This document shows positions 95-9,956 of a stretch of 11,040 nucleotides of DNA, one piece after another. Positions within the stretch are counted from its first letter, which is position 1. Each line of letters begins with the position of its first letter. Location of the stretch: contig JAFGQA010000498.1 of assembly GCA_016935885.1 (NCBI GenBank), positions 1 through 11,040 on the forward strand, written 5' to 3'. The notes under the pieces are model-generated. The model was not told where the DNA came from. It saw only the letters and a program-made list of their open reading frames with translations, and searched no databases. The position numbers and the translations under genes are program-made. The stretch is from Phycisphaerae bacterium. GTDB lineage: Bacteria; Planctomycetota; Phycisphaerae; UBA1845; UTPLA1.

Positions 95-139
95 CGCAGG
101 CAAGCTGCGCGTGGCACACGCCTGAACTGTCACGGACCC
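95..139 (+). repeat. Truncated right end of the 142-bp miniature element (copy D)
   Basis: The last 45 bases match the right half of the full element at 3886-4027. They contain the AGGCAAGCTG hairpin region, GTGGCACACGCC, and the terminal inverted repeat GTCACGGACCC at 129-139. The left half is missing, so the copy was cut by a deletion or by the mobile element whose transposase may end at 58. It lies about 100 bp upstream of the C45 hydrolase start and may form part of that gene's leader or promoter region. In the internal stem, one G-C pair of the full copies is replaced by C-G here. Confidence 0.7.
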
Positions 140-1673: not shown

Positions 1674-1772
1674 CAGCCCGTGGTAAAAGGGAGAACAGCG
1701 GATCGGAAACGCCGTTCCTGACCGTAAAAACCACCGGCTTTGGCGCCGGTGCCACAGTTTTGCCACGGGCTG
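1674..1772. repeat. 99-bp inverted-repeat element with TTAG flanks and internal TTTGGC-loop hairpin
   Basis: CAGCCCGTGG (1674-1683) and CCACGGGCTG (1763-1772) are perfect inverted repeats. TTAG lies directly outside both (1670-1673 and 1773-1776), as a 4-bp target duplication would. Allowing mismatches, the inverted repeat extends to about 19 bases on each side. Inside is a hairpin, CACCGGC (1732-1738), loop TTTGGC, GCCGGTG (1745-1751). No coding capacity. It sits between two convergent genes and may also act as a two-way terminator. Mobile origin is an inference from the symmetry. Confidence 0.45.
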
Positions 1773-2600: not shown

Positions 2601-3716
2601 ATGTCGGCGACTGTCTCACTGAAGATGCTCCTGGCTGACCACACGATGCCGGCCCATCCGGATCTGGTCCGCCGCGAGGAGAAAGGTGTCCGCTGCCTTG
2701 CCTGCGGACACCGGTGCCTGGTGAAGCCTGGCCGCTCGGGCGTTTGCAGGGTGCGGTTCAACCGGGACGGGGAGCTGCGTGTGCCGGCCGGCTACGTGTC
2801 GGGCTTGCAGGTCGATCCGATCGAGAAGAAGCCGTTTTACCACGCCCTTCCCGGGCGGGACGCGCTGTCGTTCGGGATGCTGAGCTGTAGCTTTCACTGT
2901 CCATTCTGCCAGAACTGGGTGACGTCGCAGACCCTGCGCGACGACCAGGCGGTCAGCATGCCGAGGTTCTGCACGGCGAAGCAGTTGGCGGACCTGGCCG
3001 TCGAGCACGGCGCGCCGGCCGTCGTCTCGACGTACAACGAGCCGCTGATCACGAGCGAATGGGCCGTGGAGGTTTTCAAGGAGGCCAAGGCCCACGGATT
3101 GATGTGTGGCTACGTCTCAAATGGCAACGGCACGCCGGAGGTGCTCGCCTTCCTGCGGCCGTATCTTGACTTGATCAACGTGGACCTGAAGTGCTTCGAC
3201 GACAGGCGCTATCGCAAGCTAGGCGGCGTGTTGGCGAAGGTGCTGGCAACGATCGAGCAACTGGTCTCGGACGGCTACTGGGTGGAGATCGTCACGCTCG
3301 TGGTGCCGGGCTTCAACGACAGCGACGACGAGTTGACGCGGATGGCCAAGTTCATTGCCGGGATCTCGCGCGATATCCCGTGGCACGTGACGGCGTTTCA
3401 TCCGGACTACAAGATGCAGGGCCCGCCGCGGACGCCTGCGGCAACGTTGGTTCGGGCATACGACATTGGCAAGGCGGCCGGTCTGATGTTCGTGTATCCC
3501 GGCAACGTCCACGGCGGCGTCGGCGACCGGGAGAACACATTCTGCCCAGCGTGCAACGAACTGGTGATCCGGCGATCGGGGTTTTACGTCGAGGAGAACC
3601 GGATGACGTCGCCCGGCAAGTGCCCGGCGTGTGACACCTCGATTTCCGGTGTTTGGGAAGACACGGCGCCACACCAATCCGATGGGACCGGCATCCCCAG
3701 GCCGGTTCGGCCGTAA
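2601..3716 (+). CDS. amrS: AmmeMemoRadiSam-type radical SAM enzyme
   Basis: Encodes 371 residues from ATG at 2601; TTG at 2577 and ATG at 2625 or 2646 are alternatives, and none has a strong ribosome-binding site. The radical SAM cluster motif is CSFHCPFC (Cys96, Cys100, Cys103), which binds the 4Fe-4S cluster that cleaves S-adenosylmethionine. An N-terminal CLACGHRC with a later Cys (32, 35, 39, 49) and a C-terminal pair of CPAC knuckles (315/318 and 341/344) match the AmrS layout, where the tail resembles a zinc ribbon and ends near SGVW. YNEPLI and NVDLKCFDD are barrel elements typical of the pyruvate-formate-lyase-activating-enzyme group. The family is usually encoded with Memo-like and AMMECR1-like partners; neither is in this window. 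The reaction is not established from sequence. The C-terminal 15-20 residues after GVWED are low-complexity. Confidence 0.88.
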   Translation: MSATVSLKMLLADHTMPAHPDLVRREEKGVRCLACGHRCLVKPGRSGVCRVRFNRDGELRVPAGYVSGLQVDPIEKKPFYHALPGRDALSFGMLSCSFHCPFCQNWVTSQTLRDDQAVSMPRFCTAKQLADLAVEHGAPAVVSTYNEPLITSEWAVEVFKEAKAHGLMCGYVSNGNGTPEVLAFLRPYLDLINVDLKCFDDRRYRKLGGVLAKVLATIEQLVSDGYWVEIVTLVVPGFNDSDDELTRMAKFIAGISRDIPWHVTAFHPDYKMQGPPRTPAATLVRAYDIGKAAGLMFVYPGNVHGGVGDRENTFCPACNELVIRRSGFYVEENRMTSPGKCPACDTSISGVWEDTAPHQSDGTGIPRPVRP

Positions 3717-3876
3717 CGGCATCGACCGCGCCCCAGACTGGAACATGGAATGGGCGGCCAGGAGCGTATCCGGCTGCACCGCCCCGGAAACGCGGCTATG
3801 GACGGGGTCTCCGGGCCGATTCCAATTTCCGATTCGCCAAGCCACGAATTCGTAGAGGCGGCGTCGTGCCGCAATG

Positions 3877-3885
3877 GACGCTCAC
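3877..3885 (+). repeat. Left 9-bp target duplication of element copy A
   Basis: GACGCTCAC abuts the left inverted repeat of the element at 3886. The same 9 bases occur directly after its right end at 4028-4036. Confidence 0.9.
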
Positions 3886-4027
3886 GGGTCCGTGACACTT
3901 CCGGCGGCATTCGATTCTGGGCGCCACGGCCGGCCTGTCCGCCCGTGCGGCCTCTCTGGTGGGCGCATGGGGGATAAACACTGGCAGGCTAGCTGCCAGT
4001 GGCACCCGCCCAGACTGTCACGGACCC
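3886..4027 (+). mobile_element. Miniature inverted-repeat transposable element, copy A (complete)
   Basis: 142 bp bounded by perfect 12-bp inverted repeats, GGGTCCGTGACA (3886-3897) and TGTCACGGACCC (4016-4027). It is flanked by a perfect 9-bp duplication, GACGCTCAC. About 90% identical to copy B (9807-9947) in the other orientation. It has two internal stem-loops: CACGGCCGG/CCGCCCGTG (one mismatch), and a perfect CACTGGCAG (3979-3987), loop GCTAG, CTGCCAGTG (3993-4001). No reading frame of its own makes sense, so it depends on a transposase elsewhere. The transposase family cannot be named from the ends; several bacterial families make 9-bp duplications. It lies between the radical SAM gene and the PpiD-like gene, about 110 bases before the latter's start. 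Confidence 0.9.
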
Positions 4028-4036
4028 GACGCTCAC
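4028..4036 (+). repeat. Right 9-bp target duplication of element copy A
   Basis: GACGCTCAC, identical to 3877-3885, directly after the right inverted repeat. Confidence 0.9.
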
Positions 4037-4054
4037 TCGACGCCGGGGACGGGC

Positions 4055-4082
4055 TTGCGGCCGCCATCAATAAGCGTATGCT
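4055..4082 (+). promoter_or_regulatory. Possible sigma-70-like promoter of the PpiD-like gene
   Basis: TTGCGG (4055-4060) and TATGCT (4077-4082) are separated by 16 bases and lie just outside the miniature element, about 55 bases before the start codon. Both boxes are only partial matches to TTGACA/TATAAT. Confidence 0.3.
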
Positions 4083-4136
4083 AGTGGGTTTGCGAGTTTT
4101 GGCGACAACCACCGCTACGATAAGGAGTTGCGGGCA

Positions 4137-6287
4137 ATGATGAAGTGGCTGCGAAAACACACCAAACAGATCATGGTTGTGGTTGTGTTGTTCTCGATGT
4201 TTGCGTTCGTGGGTGGCTCGGCCCTTCAGTGGATCCTCTCGCCAAGCAGGAGTGCCGATCCTTATGCCCGGGTGTTTGGCAAGGAGATCACCTTCCTCGA
4301 TATGTACCCCGCACAGCGGGACACTTCGACGCTGGAGCGGCTGTACCTCTCATGGAAGTATGACCTTCCAAACTGGGACATGACCGTTCGTCACTGGTAT
4401 GTGCTCGCCCAGGAGGCGGAACGAGCCGGGATCGTCATCCCCGATGAAGAGGTCGAGGAGGCGTTGCAGCTTCGAGTGCAACTTCTGGAGCAGCAGGGTT
4501 TTCCCGCGGATTACCTCGACGTGCTGCGGACTCAATCCAGGATCACGCCGATCGAGGTCCGCCGGGCACTGCGCCAGCACCTTGCGATTCAGAAGAATGC
4601 CGCACGTGTGAGTGACGCGGCGACTCCTTCGGAGGCGGAGGTCCGGCACTACGTGCGCGACACCGCGAACAACGTGCGTGTTCGGTTTGTGACGCTGGAC
4701 GCGCAGAAGTTCCTCGATCCAAACGAGACGTTCACGGAGGAGGCATTGCGGGCCCACTTCGAGGCCAACAAAGACGTTGACGCGGGGGACAGCGAGACGG
4801 GATTCGGGTGCCGGTATCCGCGACGGGTCAAGGTGCAGTACATCCTGGCGTCTATTTCAGAGATTGAACCCCAGGTTGCCGTCACCTTCGAAGAAATCAA
4901 GGACTATTGGAAGAAGAACAAGGGACAGTATAAGAAGACCATTCAGGTTGATGCTCCTGATCCGACGACCGGCCCGGCCACGACTCAGGCCTCGACGCGG
5001 CCGGCGGAGCCACCCAAGAAGGTCTCCAAAGAAGTGGAGAAGAGCTTCAGCGAGGCGCGGGCCGACGTCGAACGTGCCATCCGAAAGAAGAAGGCGTTGC
5101 AGACGGCCGAGGAGGCGATGCGAAAGGCCGCGAGGGAGTTGCTACGCCCGTGGGAAGGCCAGAAGACGGACGTGAGGACCGGCTACAAGCCGATCCCGCA
5201 GGTGGCGCAGGATCCGGATCACATGCGATCGATATCCGAGGCCATGTCGAGGGAATTCGGCATTCCTCTGGAATACAAGGAGACACCGCTTTCTTCGATG
5301 GACACGTTGTCCAAGGACTCGACGCTTCGCTCGGTACGATTGGAGGGTGGAGGCCAGGAGAGCATAAGTCTGACCGACTACGCCTTCCGCGTGCCCCCCT
5401 TTGTGAAGCGCGCGATGGCGGAAGAGACGGGCCCCTGCCTTCAGCTCTTTCAATCACCGGATGTCCCATTGAAGGGAACGGCGTATCAATTCGCTCACGG
5501 TCAGTTCACGCAATCGGAGAACCTCGTTCTGTTTCGCGTGGTCGAGGCGCGGGAGGCGGAGGCCCCGACGAGCCTTGCGGAGGTTCGGGGTGACGTGGAG
5601 CGCGATCTGCGGGTGGTGCGGGCGTTTGAACGCATCGAACCGGTGGCCAAGGAGATCTTCGCCGTGGCCTCGCGGTTGGGTGTGCAGGACGCGATGACCC
5701 TTTTTGAGGAGCTTCGCACCAAGCGGGGTGTCCGAGACGCAATCTCGCCGGCACCGTTCAGTCGACGAGTCAGTCTGGCAGACTCAAAAGACCGGGCCGA
5801 GCAGGCCCGCTACTTGGAGGCCTTGGAAGCGGGTAAGCCGACGTTGGCGGCGCCGAACGTGCCAAGCGTGGGTGCCTCCAAGGAGTTCGTGGACGCCTGC
5901 TTCGAGATGGCAGTGGAAGGATGGCAGCCGGAGGAGGTGGATTCACCGGAGACCGAGCAGGTCCAGGCAGCAACCACCATGCCGGCGGCGACGCCGACGC
6001 CGGTGGTGCGGTTGCTTTCCATTCCTAAGCTGCGGAAGTGGTTCGTCATCGAACTGCTGGGCACGGAGGATGTGGAACAGGACCGGTTCGAATCCGAGCT
6101 TCGCGAGGCGGCATACAACAGCCTTAGGGGGGAGCGCCGCCTCAAGCTGCGCATGGACTGGTTCAAGCCGGAGAACATCGATGCCCGTTGTGGCTTCGAG
6201 TTCATCGCGCCCGAGGAGGCCGAGGAGCCGTCGGGTTCGGATGAAGGCATCGACGCCGCTGACCAACCGCCCTTTCCTTACCTTTAG
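4137..6287 (+). CDS. Membrane-anchored PpiD/SurA-like periplasmic chaperone
   Basis: Encodes 716 residues. AAGGAG at 4122-4127 lies 9 bases before ATG 4137 (or 12 before the next ATG, 4140). Residues 1-9 are basic (WLRKHTK), then a hydrophobic segment at about 10-33 forms an N-terminal signal anchor, putting the bulk in the periplasm. Residues 40-160 look like a SurA-type N-terminal domain: GKEITFLDM, then ERAGIVIPDEEVEEAL and TPIEVRRALRQHLAIQK. Two segments of the FTEEALRAHFEANKD / VTFEEIKDYWKKNKGQYK type follow. A Pro/Thr/Ala-rich linker (about 275-295) and a charged, probably coiled-coil helix (about 297-345) come next. I see no convincing parvulin active-site motif, so it may be a chaperone without isomerase activity. 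The acidic C-terminus ends PPFPYL. The family assignment rests on the N-terminal architecture, which is frequent in planctomycetes. It appears to be a single-gene unit. Confidence 0.7.
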   Translation: MMKWLRKHTKQIMVVVVLFSMFAFVGGSALQWILSPSRSADPYARVFGKEITFLDMYPAQRDTSTLERLYLSWKYDLPNWDMTVRHWYVLAQEAERAGIVIPDEEVEEALQLRVQLLEQQGFPADYLDVLRTQSRITPIEVRRALRQHLAIQKNAARVSDAATPSEAEVRHYVRDTANNVRVRFVTLDAQKFLDPNETFTEEALRAHFEANKDVDAGDSETGFGCRYPRRVKVQYILASISEIEPQVAVTFEEIKDYWKKNKGQYKKTIQVDAPDPTTGPATTQASTRPAEPPKKVSKEVEKSFSEARADVERAIRKKKALQTAEEAMRKAARELLRPWEGQKTDVRTGYKPIPQVAQDPDHMRSISEAMSREFGIPLEYKETPLSSMDTLSKDSTLRSVRLEGGGQESISLTDYAFRVPPFVKRAMAEETGPCLQLFQSPDVPLKGTAYQFAHGQFTQSENLVLFRVVEAREAEAPTSLAEVRGDVERDLRVVRAFERIEPVAKEIFAVASRLGVQDAMTLFEELRTKRGVRDAISPAPFSRRVSLADSKDRAEQARYLEALEAGKPTLAAPNVPSVGASKEFVDACFEMAVEGWQPEEVDSPETEQVQAATTMPAATPTPVVRLLSIPKLRKWFVIELLGTEDVEQDRFESELREAAYNSLRGERRLKLRMDWFKPENIDARCGFEFIAPEEAEEPSGSDEGIDAADQPPFPYL

Positions 6288-6575
6288 GAGTCTCGCAGGA
6301 AAGAAGTAAGCGGCTGATCCGCCAAACGGCAAGCCAACACGTAAGCCAAGCGGAGCAATCGCTCATGCCACTCCTGCGAGATGCCGCAGCCGCTTCAACC
6401 CGGATCGCCGCCAGCAACGCCAGTTTCGACAGCGTCACGTGACGACTGGCTTACGAGCCAGGATTACACCGAATCTCTCGCAGCGCCAACGCCAACATTG
6501 ACAGCGTCACGAGACGATACTGCTCCACCGGCCCGAGCAATCCCCGAACATACGCCGATGCGCAGTGATTCGTGC
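6288..6575. other. Non-coding debris with imperfect 72-bp-period repeat
   Basis: No intact gene is supported. Bases 6413-6445 and 6485-6517 are alike (26 of 33, sharing GACAGCGTCACG), a period of 72. CGTAAGCCA (6340-6348) and TGGCTTACG (6447-6455) are perfect inverted repeats 98 bases apart. The area leads into the integrase relic and could be its decayed upstream part, but the translated frames show no recognisable domain. Confidence 0.4.
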
Positions 6576-6629
6576 GACGTTCATGGCTTGCGTCACACAT
6601 TCGCCATGCTCCTGAGCCGCGCCGGCGCA
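6576..6629 (+). pseudogene. Tyrosine recombinase (integrase) relic, catalytic HxxR box
   Basis: The frame at 6576 encodes DVHGLRHTFAMLLSRAGA. This matches the conserved box II of phage-type integrases (H-x-L-R-H-T-F-A-x-x-L-x-x-x-G), which holds the catalytic His and Arg (here His 6582-6584, Arg 6591-6593). Only about 18 residues are recognisable. Upstream the usual Arg and Lys boxes are absent, and downstream the frame runs straight into the truncated miniature element at about 6629, so the catalytic Tyr is lost. It is a dead fragment. A chance match cannot be fully excluded, but the run of conserved positions is long. Confidence 0.5.
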
Positions 6630-6839
6630 CGACCACGGACGGCTTGTCCGCCCGTGCGGTCCCTCTGATGGGCGCACGGGGCAAACACACTGGCAGGCAA
6701 GTTGCCATTGGCACACGCCTACAGCACTTCACGGTTGGCTGCACCTGTGGCACCGCCGTCTCGGCGGTGGATTCACGGGCTTTGGCGCCCGTGCCAGAAT
6801 CGCAGGCAAGCGTGAACTGCTCGAAACTGTCACGGACCC
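6629..6839 (+). repeat. Decayed miniature element (copy C) with hairpin cassette insertion
   Basis: Bases from about 6629 to 6738 match the middle and right part of the 142-bp element (GTCCGCCCGTGCGG, TCTGATGGGCGCA, CACTGGCAGGCAAGTTGCCA) but lack its left end; a corrupted right end, CTTCACGGTTGG, lies near 6728-6738. A second, intact right end, GTCACGGACCC, closes the block at 6829-6839. Between them sit two hairpins, CACCGCCG/CGGCGGTG (6751-6769) and CACGGGC-TTTGGC-GCCCGTG (6774-6793). The structure suggests nested insertions or a fusion of two element ends. No target duplication is seen. Confidence 0.65.
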
Positions 6840-6912: not shown

Positions 6913-9564
6913 TTAACGGGTTCGGCGGCGGCCGATCGTGCGGAAGCCGACCACCCCGGCGACCACGCCCACCATCGGCAGCGGCGCACAGGGCCCGCAG
7001 GGCGGACACTGGTACGGTTCCACACTCACGTTAAGACCGTAGCTGCTGGTCTTGCCTTCCTCGTAGGGCATGACGAGCAGATAGAGGTCGTCGGGCTCGA
7101 CGAGGATCTCGATGCGCTCGTGTGAGTCGAAATTCTCCGAGATGGCCAGCGCGTTCTGATTCGAGTCCGCGAGACCGAGATCGAGGTCGCCATCGGGGCC
7201 GTCGACCGTGATCGTCAGGATGCTGGGCTCGCTGACGCGGATGCGGAACCAGTCCTGGTCCATGCCCTGCAACTGATGGCTGCCGGGCTGGACGAACGCG
7301 GCTTGTTGGGCTGTGTCGTTTTCCTCGTACTGGTCGTCACCACCCGGCGGCGTAGGCGAAGGCGTGGGCGTGGGCGTAGGCGTGGGCGTAGGCGAAGGCG
7401 TGGGGGTAGGCGTCGGCGTCGGGTTGCCTGCCAGGCTGACGTTCATCGTGTAGCTGCAAGTCTGGCCGTTGATCGGGACCACCAGGATGAAGTAATCGCC
7501 CGGCTGCACGGCGGCGGTGACGGTCTCGTTCGAGTCGGGACCTTCCGAAAGACCCAGCGCCTGGGGCTCGGCATCGGTGGTGAACACACCGAGGTCCAGG
7601 TTGCCCGCATTGCCCTGCGTCTGGACGGTCAGCGTGGTGGAGGCCGTCACATTGAGGAGGAAGATGTCCGCGTCGAGGCCTTCCAACTGGTAGGTTCCAG
7701 GCTGGATACGTGCCGCTTGCTGACCGCTGTCGTTCTCCTCGTACTGGTCGTCACCGCCCGGCGGCGTAGGCGAAGGTGACGGCGTCGGGTTGCCTGCCAG
7801 GCTGACGTTCATCGTGTAGCTGGCGGTTTGGCCGTTGATCGGCACGACCACGACGAAGTAATCACCCGGCTGCACGGGGCTCGCGACGGTCTCATTTGAG
7901 TCGGGACCTTCCGAGGTACCCAGCGCCTGGGGTTCGGCGTCGGTGGTGAACACGCCGAGGTCCAGGTTTCCCGCATTGCCCTGCGTCTGGACAGTCAGCG
8001 TGGTGGAAGCCGTGACGTTGAGGAGGAAGATGTCCGCGTCGAGGCCTTCCAACTGGTAGGTTCCAGGCTGGATACGTGCCGCTTGCTGTCCGCTGTCGTT
8101 CTCTTCATACTGGTCGTCACCCCCCGGTGGCGTGGGCGAAGGTGCGGGCGTCGGGTTCGTCGATAGGGCCAGGTAGGCGTTGATGCGGCCGTAACCGGTC
8201 TGGGCATCCCAGCCCTGTTGACCGAGATCATCGGTCGTTGCGGCCAGGCGGCCGCGGGCCGTCTGGGCGTCCATGCCGGGGTTGGCCGAGCGGATCAGGG
8301 CGACCACGCCAGCCGCGTAGGGCGAGGCCATGGACGTGCCATCCGAGAAATCGTAGCCGGACTCGGTCACGGTGCTCAGGATCTGCACGCCTGGAGCCAC
8401 GACTTCGAGCGCGTCGCCCCAGTTGCTGAACTCGGCGAGTTGGTCATAGGCGTCGGTGGCACCCACCGAGATCACGGCATCGTAGGCGGCGGGATAGTTG
8501 ACCTGCCCCCGGCCGTCGTTGCCCGCGGCGGCGACGAGAACCACGTCATTCGCCAGGGCGTTTGCGCAGGTGTCGGCGTAGGCCTGGCTGTAAGGTGCTC
8601 CACCGAGGCTCATGTTGATGACCTTCGCGCCGTTCTGGACGGCATAGTCGATGGCTCGCATCGTATCCGAATTGCTGATCCCGTCGGCACCCAGGACCTG
8701 CAACGGCATGATCCTCACGTCCGCCGTACCGGCCACGCCGAGGTTGTTATCCGCCACGGCAGCGATGATGCCGGCCACGTGCGTGCCGTGCCAATGCGTA
8801 GGACCGGGGTTGTTGTTCTCTGCGGTGAAGTTCCAACCGTAGACGTCGTCCACGAAGCCGTTGCCATCGTCATCAACGCCGTTGAACTCCTCGTTCGGGT
8901 TCCGCCACATTTGCTCGGCGAGGTCCGGATGGTCCAGTTGCACGCCGCTGTCGATGACCGCCACGACCAGGGACGGATCACCACGGTGCAGATCCCATGC
9001 TTCGTAGGCGCGGATCCTCTCCAAGGCGTACTGCTGGTCGGAGCCCGGATCTGAGCTGCCGTTGGTATACAACCGGGCGGACGACACCGGCGGCGGCGGC
9101 GGCGCCAAGTAATCGGGCTCCACAAGGAGGACATCCTGCTCGTAGGACAACTCGGTCAAGGCCTGCTCAACGGAGAATCCCTCTGTGAGTTCGGCGATGA
9201 ACCACCGCGGACGCGTGCCGAGGGCGTGGGCCTTCATCTCTGAGCCGACGGGCGAAAGACTCACCAGGCGTTCGACGCCGGGTAAACCCATGCTGCTGTC
9301 CGCCGCAAGCGTGGAGTGAGCGCATTGGATCTTCACCAGGACGCGGCCAGCGGCGTGGGGCCCGGCGACTGCGTCCCACGGGGAGTCTTCGTGCATCTCG
9401 CGGTTGTGAAGGACGTCCCACGGTGAGTCGTGCTGGGCCTGTGCCGTTCTGGTGAATCCGAGCAACACCAGGGCCATCCCCAGCACGAACAGGCCGGACC
9501 ACGTCCACATGCCTGCCCGACAGATCGAAGAACAACTCGGTTCGTTTTGGCTTCTCATAGTCAT
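6913..9564 (-). CDS. Secreted subtilisin-like serine protease with three PPC domains
   Basis: Encodes 883 residues from ATG at 9564, preceded by AAGGAG (9572-9577) with 7 bases spacing; ATG 9558 is a less favoured alternative. Signal peptide about residues 1-43 (ending AQA before QHD). A propeptide-like region follows to about 165, including a Pro run. The S8 domain spans about 170-468 with the full catalytic set: Asp205 in VIDSGV, His259 in HGTHVAG, Asn349 in AAAGND (oxyanion hole), Ser411 in GTSMASP. A DDDGNGFVDD stretch (231-240) may bind calcium. Three bacterial pre-peptidase C-terminal (PPC) domains follow, each beginning GGDDQYEEND, at about 481-590, 603-712 and 741-850, joined by Pro/Thr/Ser linkers. 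The first two are nearly identical. The tail CPPCGPC, a short hydrophobic stretch and GRRRTR ends the protein. It probably degrades extracellular or surface protein. Confidence 0.92.
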   Translation of the reverse strand: MTMRSQNEPSCSSICRAGMWTWSGLFVLGMALVLLGFTRTAQAQHDSPWDVLHNREMHEDSPWDAVAGPHAAGRVLVKIQCAHSTLAADSSMGLPGVERLVSLSPVGSEMKAHALGTRPRWFIAELTEGFSVEQALTELSYEQDVLLVEPDYLAPPPPPVSSARLYTNGSSDPGSDQQYALERIRAYEAWDLHRGDPSLVVAVIDSGVQLDHPDLAEQMWRNPNEEFNGVDDDGNGFVDDVYGWNFTAENNNPGPTHWHGTHVAGIIAAVADNNLGVAGTADVRIMPLQVLGADGISNSDTMRAIDYAVQNGAKVINMSLGGAPYSQAYADTCANALANDVVLVAAAGNDGRGQVNYPAAYDAVISVGATDAYDQLAEFSNWGDALEVVAPGVQILSTVTESGYDFSDGTSMASPYAAGVVALIRSANPGMDAQTARGRLAATTDDLGQQGWDAQTGYGRINAYLALSTNPTPAPSPTPPGGDDQYEENDSGQQAARIQPGTYQLEGLDADIFLLNVTASTTLTVQTQGNAGNLDLGVFTTDAEPQALGTSEGPDSNETVASPVQPGDYFVVVVPINGQTASYTMNVSLAGNPTPSPSPTPPGGDDQYEENDSGQQAARIQPGTYQLEGLDADIFLLNVTASTTLTVQTQGNAGNLDLGVFTTDAEPQALGLSEGPDSNETVTAAVQPGDYFILVVPINGQTCSYTMNVSLAGNPTPTPTPTPSPTPTPTPTPTPSPTPPGGDDQYEENDTAQQAAFVQPGSHQLQGMDQDWFRIRVSEPSILTITVDGPDGDLDLGLADSNQNALAISENFDSHERIEILVEPDDLYLLVMPYEEGKTSSYGLNVSVEPYQCPPCGPCAPLPMVGVVAGVVGFRTIGRRRTR
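6916..7008 (-). other. C-terminal tail resembling a tripartite sorting signal
   Basis: The last 31 residues (853-883) of the subtilase comprise CPPCGPC (Cys853, Cys856, Cys859), a short hydrophobic run (about 862-874, LPMVGVVAGVVGF) and the basic end GRRRTR. Motif, hydrophobic helix and Arg cluster is the general plan of PEP-CTERM and similar C-terminal sorting signals, but the Cys motif is not one I can assign to a named class. The hydrophobic run is short for a membrane span. Confidence 0.45.
7345..7425 (-). repeat. Hexanucleotide repeats encoding the Pro-Thr linker
   Basis: Imperfect repeats of GGCGTG/GGCGTA/GGCGAA units (plus strand) encode alternating Pro-Thr and Pro-Ser, residues 714-740 of the subtilase. 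This third linker is about 16 residues longer than the other two, consistent with slippage growth of the repeat. Confidence 0.8.
7426..8157 (-). repeat. Tandem 366-bp duplication encoding PPC domains 1 and 2
   Basis: Two adjacent 366-bp units, 7792-8157 (residues 470-591) and 7426-7791 (residues 592-713), each encode a linker plus one PPC domain. By hand count they differ at 8 of 122 residues, and long DNA stretches are the same or nearly so. The third PPC domain (7015-7344) is much more divergent. The pattern points to a recent in-frame duplication or gene conversion. Confidence 0.9.
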
Positions 9565-9797: not shown

Positions 9798-9806
9798 GTG
9801 GACCGA
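9798..9806 (+). repeat. Left 9-bp target duplication of element copy B
   Basis: GTGGACCGA abuts the element start at 9807 and recurs at 9948-9956. Confidence 0.9.
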
Positions 9807-9947
9807 GGGTCCGTGAGAGCCTGGGCGGGTGCCACTGGCAGCTTGCCTGCCAGTGCGTATGCCCCCGCGCCCACCAGAGAGACCGCACGGGCGGACATGC
9901 CGCCCGTGGCACCCAGAATCGGATGCCGCCGGAAGTGTCACGGACCC
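9807..9947 (-). mobile_element. Miniature inverted-repeat transposable element, copy B (complete)
   Basis: 141 bp, the reverse complement of copy A at about 90% identity by hand alignment (roughly ten substitutions and two small gaps). Ends GGGTCCGTGA (9807-9816) and TCACGGACCC (9938-9947); one base beyond this has changed in the end at 9817. A perfect 9-bp duplication, GTGGACCGA, flanks it. Two perfect 9-bp stem-loops lie inside: CACTGGCAG (9833-9841), loop CTTGC, CTGCCAGTG (9847-9855); and CACGGGCGG (9886-9894), loop ACATG, CCGCCCGTG (9900-9908). It lies in the divergent gap between the subtilase and the sigma factor genes. Frames across it produce arginine- and proline-rich nonsense, not a real protein. 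Confidence 0.92.
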
Positions 9948-9956
9948 GTGGACCGA
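9948..9956 (+). repeat. Right 9-bp target duplication of element copy B
   Basis: GTGGACCGA, identical to 9798-9806, directly after the element's right end. Confidence 0.9.

What the first reader, a model, noticed from the sequence alone, without database searches (positions are those of the whole stretch)
3877..4036. Complete non-autonomous transposon with 12-bp ends and 9-bp target duplication
The element 3886-4027 has perfect 12-bp terminal inverted repeats and sits exactly between two copies of GACGCTCAC. Together with copy B, which has a different 9-mer duplicated at its ends, this shows directly that a 141-142 bp DNA unit has transposed, with 9-bp staggered cuts. Opposite orientation and about 90% identity indicate separate insertions. 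I do not recognise its family.
Basis: seen in the sequence. Interest (0 to 1): 0.75.

Follow-up and report, generated by a model that had tools for sequence, protein, structure and literature searches.

The report
Miniature transposon carrying paired hairpin repeats
A 142-base piece of DNA without genes has jumped within a planctomycete-type genome, most likely by borrowing another element's enzyme, and it carries inside it two hairpin repeats of a kind usually thought to spread by a different route.

Summary
The finding holds. Window 3886-4027 has perfect 12-bp inverted ends (about 22 bp imperfect) between two exact copies of GACGCTCAC. A second copy (9807-9947, inverted, 130/143 columns identical) lies between two copies of GTGGACCGA. 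Relatives occur in Phycisphaerae/Planctomycetota drafts. Of 57 candidate end-pairs (48 if each end is used once), 18 have exact 9-bp duplications and 28 have at most one mismatch, against 1 of 3192 mispaired controls. Similar ends bound ~1.5-kb insertion sequences whose transposase is closest to the ISKra4 (Mutator-like) family. So this is most likely a MITE moved in trans by an ISKra4-like transposase. Against: no such gene was found in the four MITE-bearing genomes searched, and IS copies with both ends in one contig lack 9-bp duplications.

The less ordinary part is the interior: two inverted hairpins resembling a REP pair (REPIN). The hairpins flank a REP-associated tyrosine transposase gene in one relative and also occupy elements with different, CTAG-type ends. 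I found no description of this in nine paper searches. Novelty: new variant of a known kind.

The parts
3877..3885 (.). left copy of the 9-bp target duplication GACGCTCAC (copy A)
   Evidence: sequence
3886..4027 (-). copy A of the miniature element, 142 bp (orientation set by copy B)
3886..3907 (+). terminal inverted repeat, copy A (12 bp perfect, about 22 bp imperfect)
   Evidence: similar ends on ~1.5-kb IS
4006..4027 (-). terminal inverted repeat, copy A, other end
3979..4001 (-). REP-like hairpin 1 (9-bp stem, 5-nt loop), copy A
3925..3947 (-). REP-like hairpin 2 (inverted relative to hairpin 1), copy A, one stem pair broken
4028..4036 (.). right copy of the 9-bp target duplication GACGCTCAC (copy A)
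9798..9806 (.). left copy of the 9-bp target duplication GTGGACCGA (copy B)
9807..9947 (+). copy B of the miniature element, 141 bp, inverted relative to A, 130/143 columns identical
9833..9855 (+). REP-like hairpin 1, copy B
   Evidence: (I6)
9886..9908 (+). REP-like hairpin 2, copy B
   Evidence: (I6)
9948..9956 (.). right copy of the 9-bp target duplication GTGGACCGA (copy B)
6633..6719 (-). fragment C: interior (both hairpin regions), 85% identical to A over 87 bp, no left end; a lone right end lies at 6828-6839
   Evidence: (D4)
96..139 (-). fragment D: right 44 bp of the element (84% identical to A) with intact end, left part missing
   Evidence: (D12)

Best explanation
The unit is a MITE: a short gene-less element with the ends of an ISKra4-like (prokaryotic Mutator-like, DDE) insertion sequence, inserted here twice by a transposase supplied in trans that cuts the target with a 9-bp stagger. 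Shown: the ends, the duplications, copies in relatives, and IS with similar ends and transposase genes in other genomes. Inferred: that this transposase moved these copies, and that it acted in this host. The interior is not a deleted transposase gene but two inverted REP-like hairpins (a REPIN-like pair), so the DDE element also multiplies REP sequences.
For: TSD statistics: 18 exact and 28 with at most one mismatch of 57 pairs, 1 of 3192 in the control; 14 of the 18 come from G265 and G276. Copies in four related genomes: G265 19 matches, G276 6, G004 4, G240 1 at E<=1e-10. Similar 22-bp ends (17-20 of 22 positions) on elements of 1524-1541 bp around a transposase (L063, L225, L226). Transposase C-terminal frames score best against ISKra4 (NF033572), 174.4-202.6 bits. 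In G017 the left end (L039) and one of five right ends (L051) share the flanking 9-mer GGACCGCCA (about 5/4^9 by chance). L054 is a 499-bp element with related ends whose 131-aa frame has an N-terminal stretch like that of the IS followed by the transposase C-terminus, apparently an internal deletion. Published p-MULT elements have 18-39 bp IRs and 8- or 9-bp duplications (PMC3942029, passages). No Pfam or NCBIfam match at E<=0.01 in the four frames of 80 aa or more that I tested across copies A and B. Interior: the hairpins recur without these ends and flank a REP-associated tyrosine transposase gene in G265.
Against: No ISKra4-like transposase at E<=1e-8 in G265, G276, G240 or G004, 0 of 4; these are drafts, and multicopy IS often drop out of drafts (general knowledge). 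Elements with transposase sequence and both ends in one contig show no 9-bp duplication: 0 of 3 full-length (L063/L137, L225, L226), 0 of 2 shorter (L230, L231), and not the 499-bp L054. Transposase scores stay under the NCBIfam cut-off (205); the gene lies in two frames and the frames were scored apart. The N-terminal frames tested do not match ISKra4 clearly (E 0.006 in L227, none at E<=0.01 in L225). Only about 12-22 bp are shared between MITE and IS. Host genome not held.
Confidence: 0.85

Rival explanations
1. The element is moved by a different DDE transposase (for example another IS256/Mutator-like group) that happens to recognise GGGTCCGTGACA ends and makes 9-bp duplications.
For: No ISKra4-like gene at E<=1e-8 in G265, G276, G240 or G004; IS copies with both ends in one contig lack 9-bp duplications (0 of 5, and L054).
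Against: Near-identical 22-bp ends on IS with ISKra4-like genes, the G017 contig-end 9-mer match, and an internally deleted IS derivative with related ends.
Confidence: 0.1
2. The unit is a REPIN moved by a RAYT (HUH, Y1 transposase), and the outer ends are simply conserved flanks.
For: Two inverted REP-like hairpins inside; a RAYT flanked by the same hairpins in G265.
Against: The 9-bp duplication abuts the TIRs, not the hairpins, in 18 exact cases. To my recollection IS200/IS605-type Y1 transposition leaves no duplication; no call tested that. REP pairs also occur with other outer ends.
Confidence: 0.03
3. An immobile, conserved intergenic RNA or terminator structure whose flanking 9-mers match by chance or by selection.
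For: The strand folds better than its shuffles, z -4.78, -4.26 and -7.83 for A, B and L004.
Against: Different 9-mers duplicated at each site, opposite orientations, 1 of 3192 in the mispaired control; no Rfam match at gathering thresholds; no terminator-like site in 3700-4200 (copy B not scanned).
Confidence: 0.01

Closest known systems
ISKra4 family (p-MULT 4, Mutator superfamily), in particular the ISMich2 group
   Same: Terminal G:C pair, IR length, 8- or 9-bp duplications (PMC3942029, passages). Partner IS of 1524-1541 bp; best NCBIfam match ISKra4 for the C-terminal frames. Transposase gene split in two overlapping frames at one conserved site in 5 of 6 loci scanned; two ORFs are described for ISMich2.
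   Different: The window element has no gene. In the partner IS the second frame is +1 relative to the first, whereas the paper reports -1 for ISMich2, so I do not file it there.
Bacterial MITEs (RUP, NEMIS, ERIC, Nezha and others; named in PMC3733652, passage)
   Same: Short, gene-less, TIRs, duplications, multicopy, strongly folding.
   Different: Ends like those of an ISKra4-like element; interior is an inverted REP-like pair rather than a deleted IS.
REPIN / REP-RAYT systems (PMC3116915, PMC3733652, PMC8266576; passages)
   Same: Two inverted tagged hairpins, about 82-87 bp end to end; the same hairpin flanks one REP-associated tyrosine transposase gene in G265.
   Different: Tag here is GGTGCC (26 of 27 copies), not GTAG; the mobile unit shown by the duplications is the outer MITE, not the REP pair.

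Membership tests
MITE | Short, no transposase gene, terminal inverted repeats | tested here: met
   141-142 bp, 12-bp TIR (about 22 imperfect); the four frames tested across A and B match no Pfam or NCBIfam family at E<=0.01
MITE | Target-site duplication and multiple dispersed copies | tested here: met
   2 complete copies with exact 9-bp duplications in the window; 19 matches in G265
MITE | Autonomous relative with the same ends in the same genome | tested here: inconclusive
   IS with similar ends found in other genomes of the order; none in the 4 MITE-bearing drafts searched; host genome not held
ISKra4 family (p-MULT 4) | IR 18-39 bp with conserved terminal cytosine | tested here: met
   About 22 bp imperfect, outermost base pair G:C; definition from PMC3942029
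ISKra4 family (p-MULT 4) | 8- or 9-bp target duplication | tested here: met
   Peak at 9 bp for the MITEs and one G017 IS read across contig ends; not seen in 5 of 5 contiguous IS-derived elements nor in L054
ISKra4 family (p-MULT 4) | Transposase over the NCBIfam ISKra4 cut-off | tested here: inconclusive
   Best family for each C-terminal frame, but 200.2 (L063), 202.6 (L225), 174.4 (L226) and 176.2 (L227) bits against 205
ISMich2 group | Transposase in two ORFs related by a -1 frameshift | tested here: not met
   Two overlapping frames at one site in 5 of 6 loci scanned; the shift reads as +1 in 5 of 5
REPIN | Two inverted REPs forming a unit | tested here: met
   (I6)
REPIN | REP carries a GTAG (or CGTC) tag | tested here: not met
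   5' of hairpin 1: GTGCC in 27 of 27, GGTGCC in 26 of 27 aligned copies
REPIN | Association with a RAYT gene | tested here: inconclusive
   1 RAYT (NF047646, 91.2 bits, cut-off 80) flanked by these hairpins in G265; none in the 30 other Y1 loci fetched from the four genomes

The most novel reading that the evidence does not exclude
In this order of Planctomycetota, REP pairs spread as cargo: the same tagged hairpin pair has been taken up independently by MITEs with ISKra4-like ends (9-bp duplications) and by MITEs with CTAG-type ends, so DDE transposases rather than only RAYTs disperse REPs, and MITE interiors are interchangeable hairpin modules.
Probability: 0.45. Interest if true: 0.6.

Novelty: new variant of a known kind. 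Interest (0 to 1): 0.42.

Why it matters
How REP/REPIN repeats reach hundreds of copies is an open question, usually answered with RAYTs (PMC3116915 and PMC8266576, passages). Here is a REP-like pair whose spread as part of a DDE-type transposon can be read from target duplications, and a similar pair sits in a second element type. That makes a second route of REP dispersal testable. It also gives a probable mobiliser to an intergenic repeat found in several genomes of this order.

Tried and rejected
Own-genome search: no genome is held for the window, so copy number in the host and the empty site could not be tested. Viral contigs hold no exact match to the 22-bp end pattern; plasmids have no match to the element at E<=1e-5 and 52 records with relatives of the transposase, all under 60% identity. 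Rfam at gathering thresholds: nothing. Upstream-of-promoter insertion, known for some ISKra4-group elements: no sigma-70-type site found in 3700-4200 (copy B not scanned). L006, in a bin labelled cyanobacterium, matches the end pattern but has no duplication and no folded core; I treat it as chance or decayed. Pfam has no match for the transposase pieces tested. A general link of the hairpins with Y1 transposases was not found: none of the 30 Y1 loci fetched (about 1.5 kb on each side, less at contig ends; two further matches were not fetched) has the hairpin within 4 mismatches; only the G265:C65 gene does. A tyrosine-recombinase reading of 6381-6668 found no Pfam match at E<=0.01.

Covariation in hairpin 2 (U-A in 15, G-C in 11 of 27 copies at one pair) is compatible with selection on the stem, but it splits mainly by subfamily and may be one event; the number of pairs changed on both sides (3) is that of the shuffles (2.9), so I do not lean on it. 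The idea that interiors of these MITEs in general are hairpin modules is only partly supported: 7 of 10 tested cores fold better than 60 shuffles each (z -2.6 or lower), 3 of 10 do not.

Full report
The observation. They agree at 130 of 143 aligned columns. The end motif is found six times in the window within two mismatches, 0 of 200 shuffles reaching that number. Two of the six are lone right ends (139 and 6839); the first belongs to a truncated copy (96-139), and the second lies near an eroded interior (6633-6719). The inverted repeat runs on imperfectly to about 22 bp.

Relatives. No genome is held for the window. One scan of the genome collection (one genome for each of 84,980 species, by the tool's description) for the paired ends gave six stretches of DNA from five genomes: four Planctomycetota or Phycisphaerae MAGs and one bin labelled cyanobacterium. 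In a sample of the class of G004, 7 of 198 genomes hold the exact 22-bp end pattern. In the order of G004, 25 of 114 genomes match copy B at E<=1e-6, with at most 7 candidates scored per genome; in most of the 25 the match covers only the hairpin region. Near-complete copies, 85-91% identical, lie in G240, G276, G265 and G004; a closer look at these four gave 1, 6, 19 and 4 matches at E<=1e-10, with 40 of 58 candidates scored in G265 and 40 of 212 in G276, so those two are lower bounds.

Target duplications. I paired left and right ends 100-320 bp apart in the window and everything fetched at that point, without regard to flanks; 57 distinct pairs resulted. Exactly 9 bp are duplicated in 18, and 28 of 57 match with at most one mismatch; when the left flank of one pair is set against the right flank of another, 1 of 3192 does. 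Exact duplications of 7, 8 and 10 bp number 1, 2 and 1. With each end used only once, 48 pairs remain, with the same 18 and 28. Those with two or more mismatches include spurious pairings (for example several in L006), one-base register shifts (L090, L180, L191) and copies with clean ends but no visible duplication (L016, L040). Of the 18 exact cases 9 come from G276, 5 from G265, 2 from the window, 1 each from G004 and G001; the loci were chosen for the ends or the hairpins, not for the flanks.

The likely source of the transposase. In G017 five contig ends carry the exact 22-bp right end preceded by a stretch that is 70% identical over 30 aa to the C-terminus of the L053 transposase, and one contig end carries a left end (L039). 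The left flank 9-mer GGACCGCCA recurs next to one of the five right ends, L051, as expected for one IS copy split by the assembly. At E<=1e-60, 9 of 114 genomes of the order hold a relative of the L063 transposase. Three contiguous IS of 1524-1541 bp (L063, L225, L226) have ends that match the MITE end at 17-20 of 22 positions. Their C-terminal frames match the ISKra4 family best, at 200.2, 202.6 and 174.4 bits (L227: 176.2) against a cut-off of 205; the L225 reading has one stop inside the match. L054 carries a 499-bp element with related ends whose 131-aa frame joins a start like that of the IS gene to the transposase C-terminus, a plausible step from IS towards MITE. Against this: none of five contiguous elements with transposase sequence nor L054 shows a 9-bp duplication, and no related transposase was found in G265, G276, G240 or G004 at E<=1e-8. 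Published Mutator-like prokaryotic elements have 18-39 bp ends with a terminal cytosine and 8- or 9-bp duplications, and the p-MULT 4 cluster includes Planctomycetes (PMC3942029, passages read).

The interior. The 27 aligned copies share two hairpins with 9-bp stems, in inverted orientation, the first preceded by GTGCC in 27 and GGTGCC in 26. The structure I named holds in 96.9% of cells. The hairpin is more widespread than the element: with up to two mismatches it occurs 29 times in G265, 161 in G276, 4 in G004 and 1 in G240, against 0 for the reversed pattern. I read 33 of the 161 G276 places (exact matches, places near contig starts passed over) and 7 of the 29 G265 places (two-mismatch variants only, so not a sample of all). 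In G276, 13 of 33 have ISKra4-like ends on both sides and 8 on one side (six of these eight run off a contig), 5 have CTAG-type ends on both sides, 1 on one side, and 6 have neither clearly (one of them, L157, met one end pattern only, which I take as chance). In G265, 2 of 7 have CTAG-type ends on both sides, 3 on one side, and 2 (L185, L186) lie on either side of a gene that matches the NCBIfam REP-associated tyrosine transposase (91.2 bits, cut-off 80). None of the 30 other Y1-transposase loci fetched from the four genomes has the hairpin nearby; G004 and G240 have few hairpins in any case. So the hairpin pair looks like a REPIN, with a tag other than GTAG, that sits as cargo in at least two kinds of TIR element. 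In the two kinds the spacers between the hairpins differ, which suggests separate captures; this is inference. The CTAG-type duplication was not tested.

How it works. Most likely an ISKra4-like DDE transposase, made elsewhere in the genome or the population, binds the ends and inserts the unit at a 9-bp stagger; repair gives the duplication. Steps shown: ends, duplication, multiple copies, IS with similar ends in other genomes. Steps inferred: binding, cutting, the trans supply in this host, and whether movement is cut-and-paste or copy-out. What the hairpins do for the element is not known; whole copies fold far better than shuffles as single strands (z -4.78, -4.26, -7.83 for A, B and L004).

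Literature. Nine searches listed no paper that I recognised as describing ISKra4-type MITEs of Planctomycetota or REP pairs carried inside MITEs. I saw listings and beginnings of abstracts, and of four papers (PMC3733652, PMC3942029, PMC3116915, PMC8266576) the passages named; the library lacks most subscription journals. Known is the reverse case, IS that insert into REPs (PMC3116915, passage).

Assessment. As a MITE this is ordinary and well supported. The REP-like pair as cargo of a DDE-type MITE, with a similar pair in a second element type, is the part a specialist may find surprising.

Noticed in passing
L063 780, L226 1533, L229 1539 (+); L225 and L227 (-), 1539 and 1536 on the reverse complement: The ISKra4-like transposase gene is split into two overlapping frames at the identical sequence TCTTTTTCCCCCTC in 5 of 6 loci scanned; the second frame is +1 relative to the first. 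It looks like a conserved frameshift or slippage site, in the +1 direction where -1 is published for ISMich2.
   Followed up: partly
L156, L164, L171, L192, L193 (G276) and L184, L190 (G265): A second MITE type with ends of the form CTAGTGC..CGCCAC / CTAGTACT.CGACAC carries a similar REP-like hairpin pair with a short spacer. The ends would fit an IS630/Tc1-like element with TA duplication (recalled, not tested).
   Followed up: partly
L224 1553-2315 (G265:C65): A REP-associated tyrosine transposase gene with the hairpin on one side and a hairpin pair on the other: a candidate REPtron for the GGTGCC-tagged REP.
   Followed up: partly
window 6570-6632: Just left of fragment C a frame reads HGLRHTFAMLLSRAGA, which resembles the end of a tyrosine recombinase (recalled motif); Pfam gave no match at E<=0.01 for the frame 6381-6668. 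Fragment C may have been truncated together with an integrase remnant.
   Followed up: partly
window 1732-1754 and 6774-6796: Another short palindrome (CACCGGCTTTGGCGCCGGTGCCA / CACGGGCTTTGGCGCCCGTGCCA, D10) that ends in GGTGCCA or CGTGCCA, possibly a further REP type.
   Followed up: no
L002, L010: MITEs with the same ends but a different interior, a long hairpin around GAGCCCGAAGCGCAAGCGA (core z -5.1 and -4.9); interiors of this MITE family seem exchangeable.
   Followed up: partly
L002, L003, L004, L005: In all four the two 9-mers differ by exactly one transition, C on the left and T on the right as found in the locus orientation. It may be chance.
   Followed up: no
window 7397-8062: The S8 peptidase gene (6913-9564, minus strand) holds two 300-bp repeats 89% identical (D1), in a protein with three PPC-domain stretches.
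   Followed up: no
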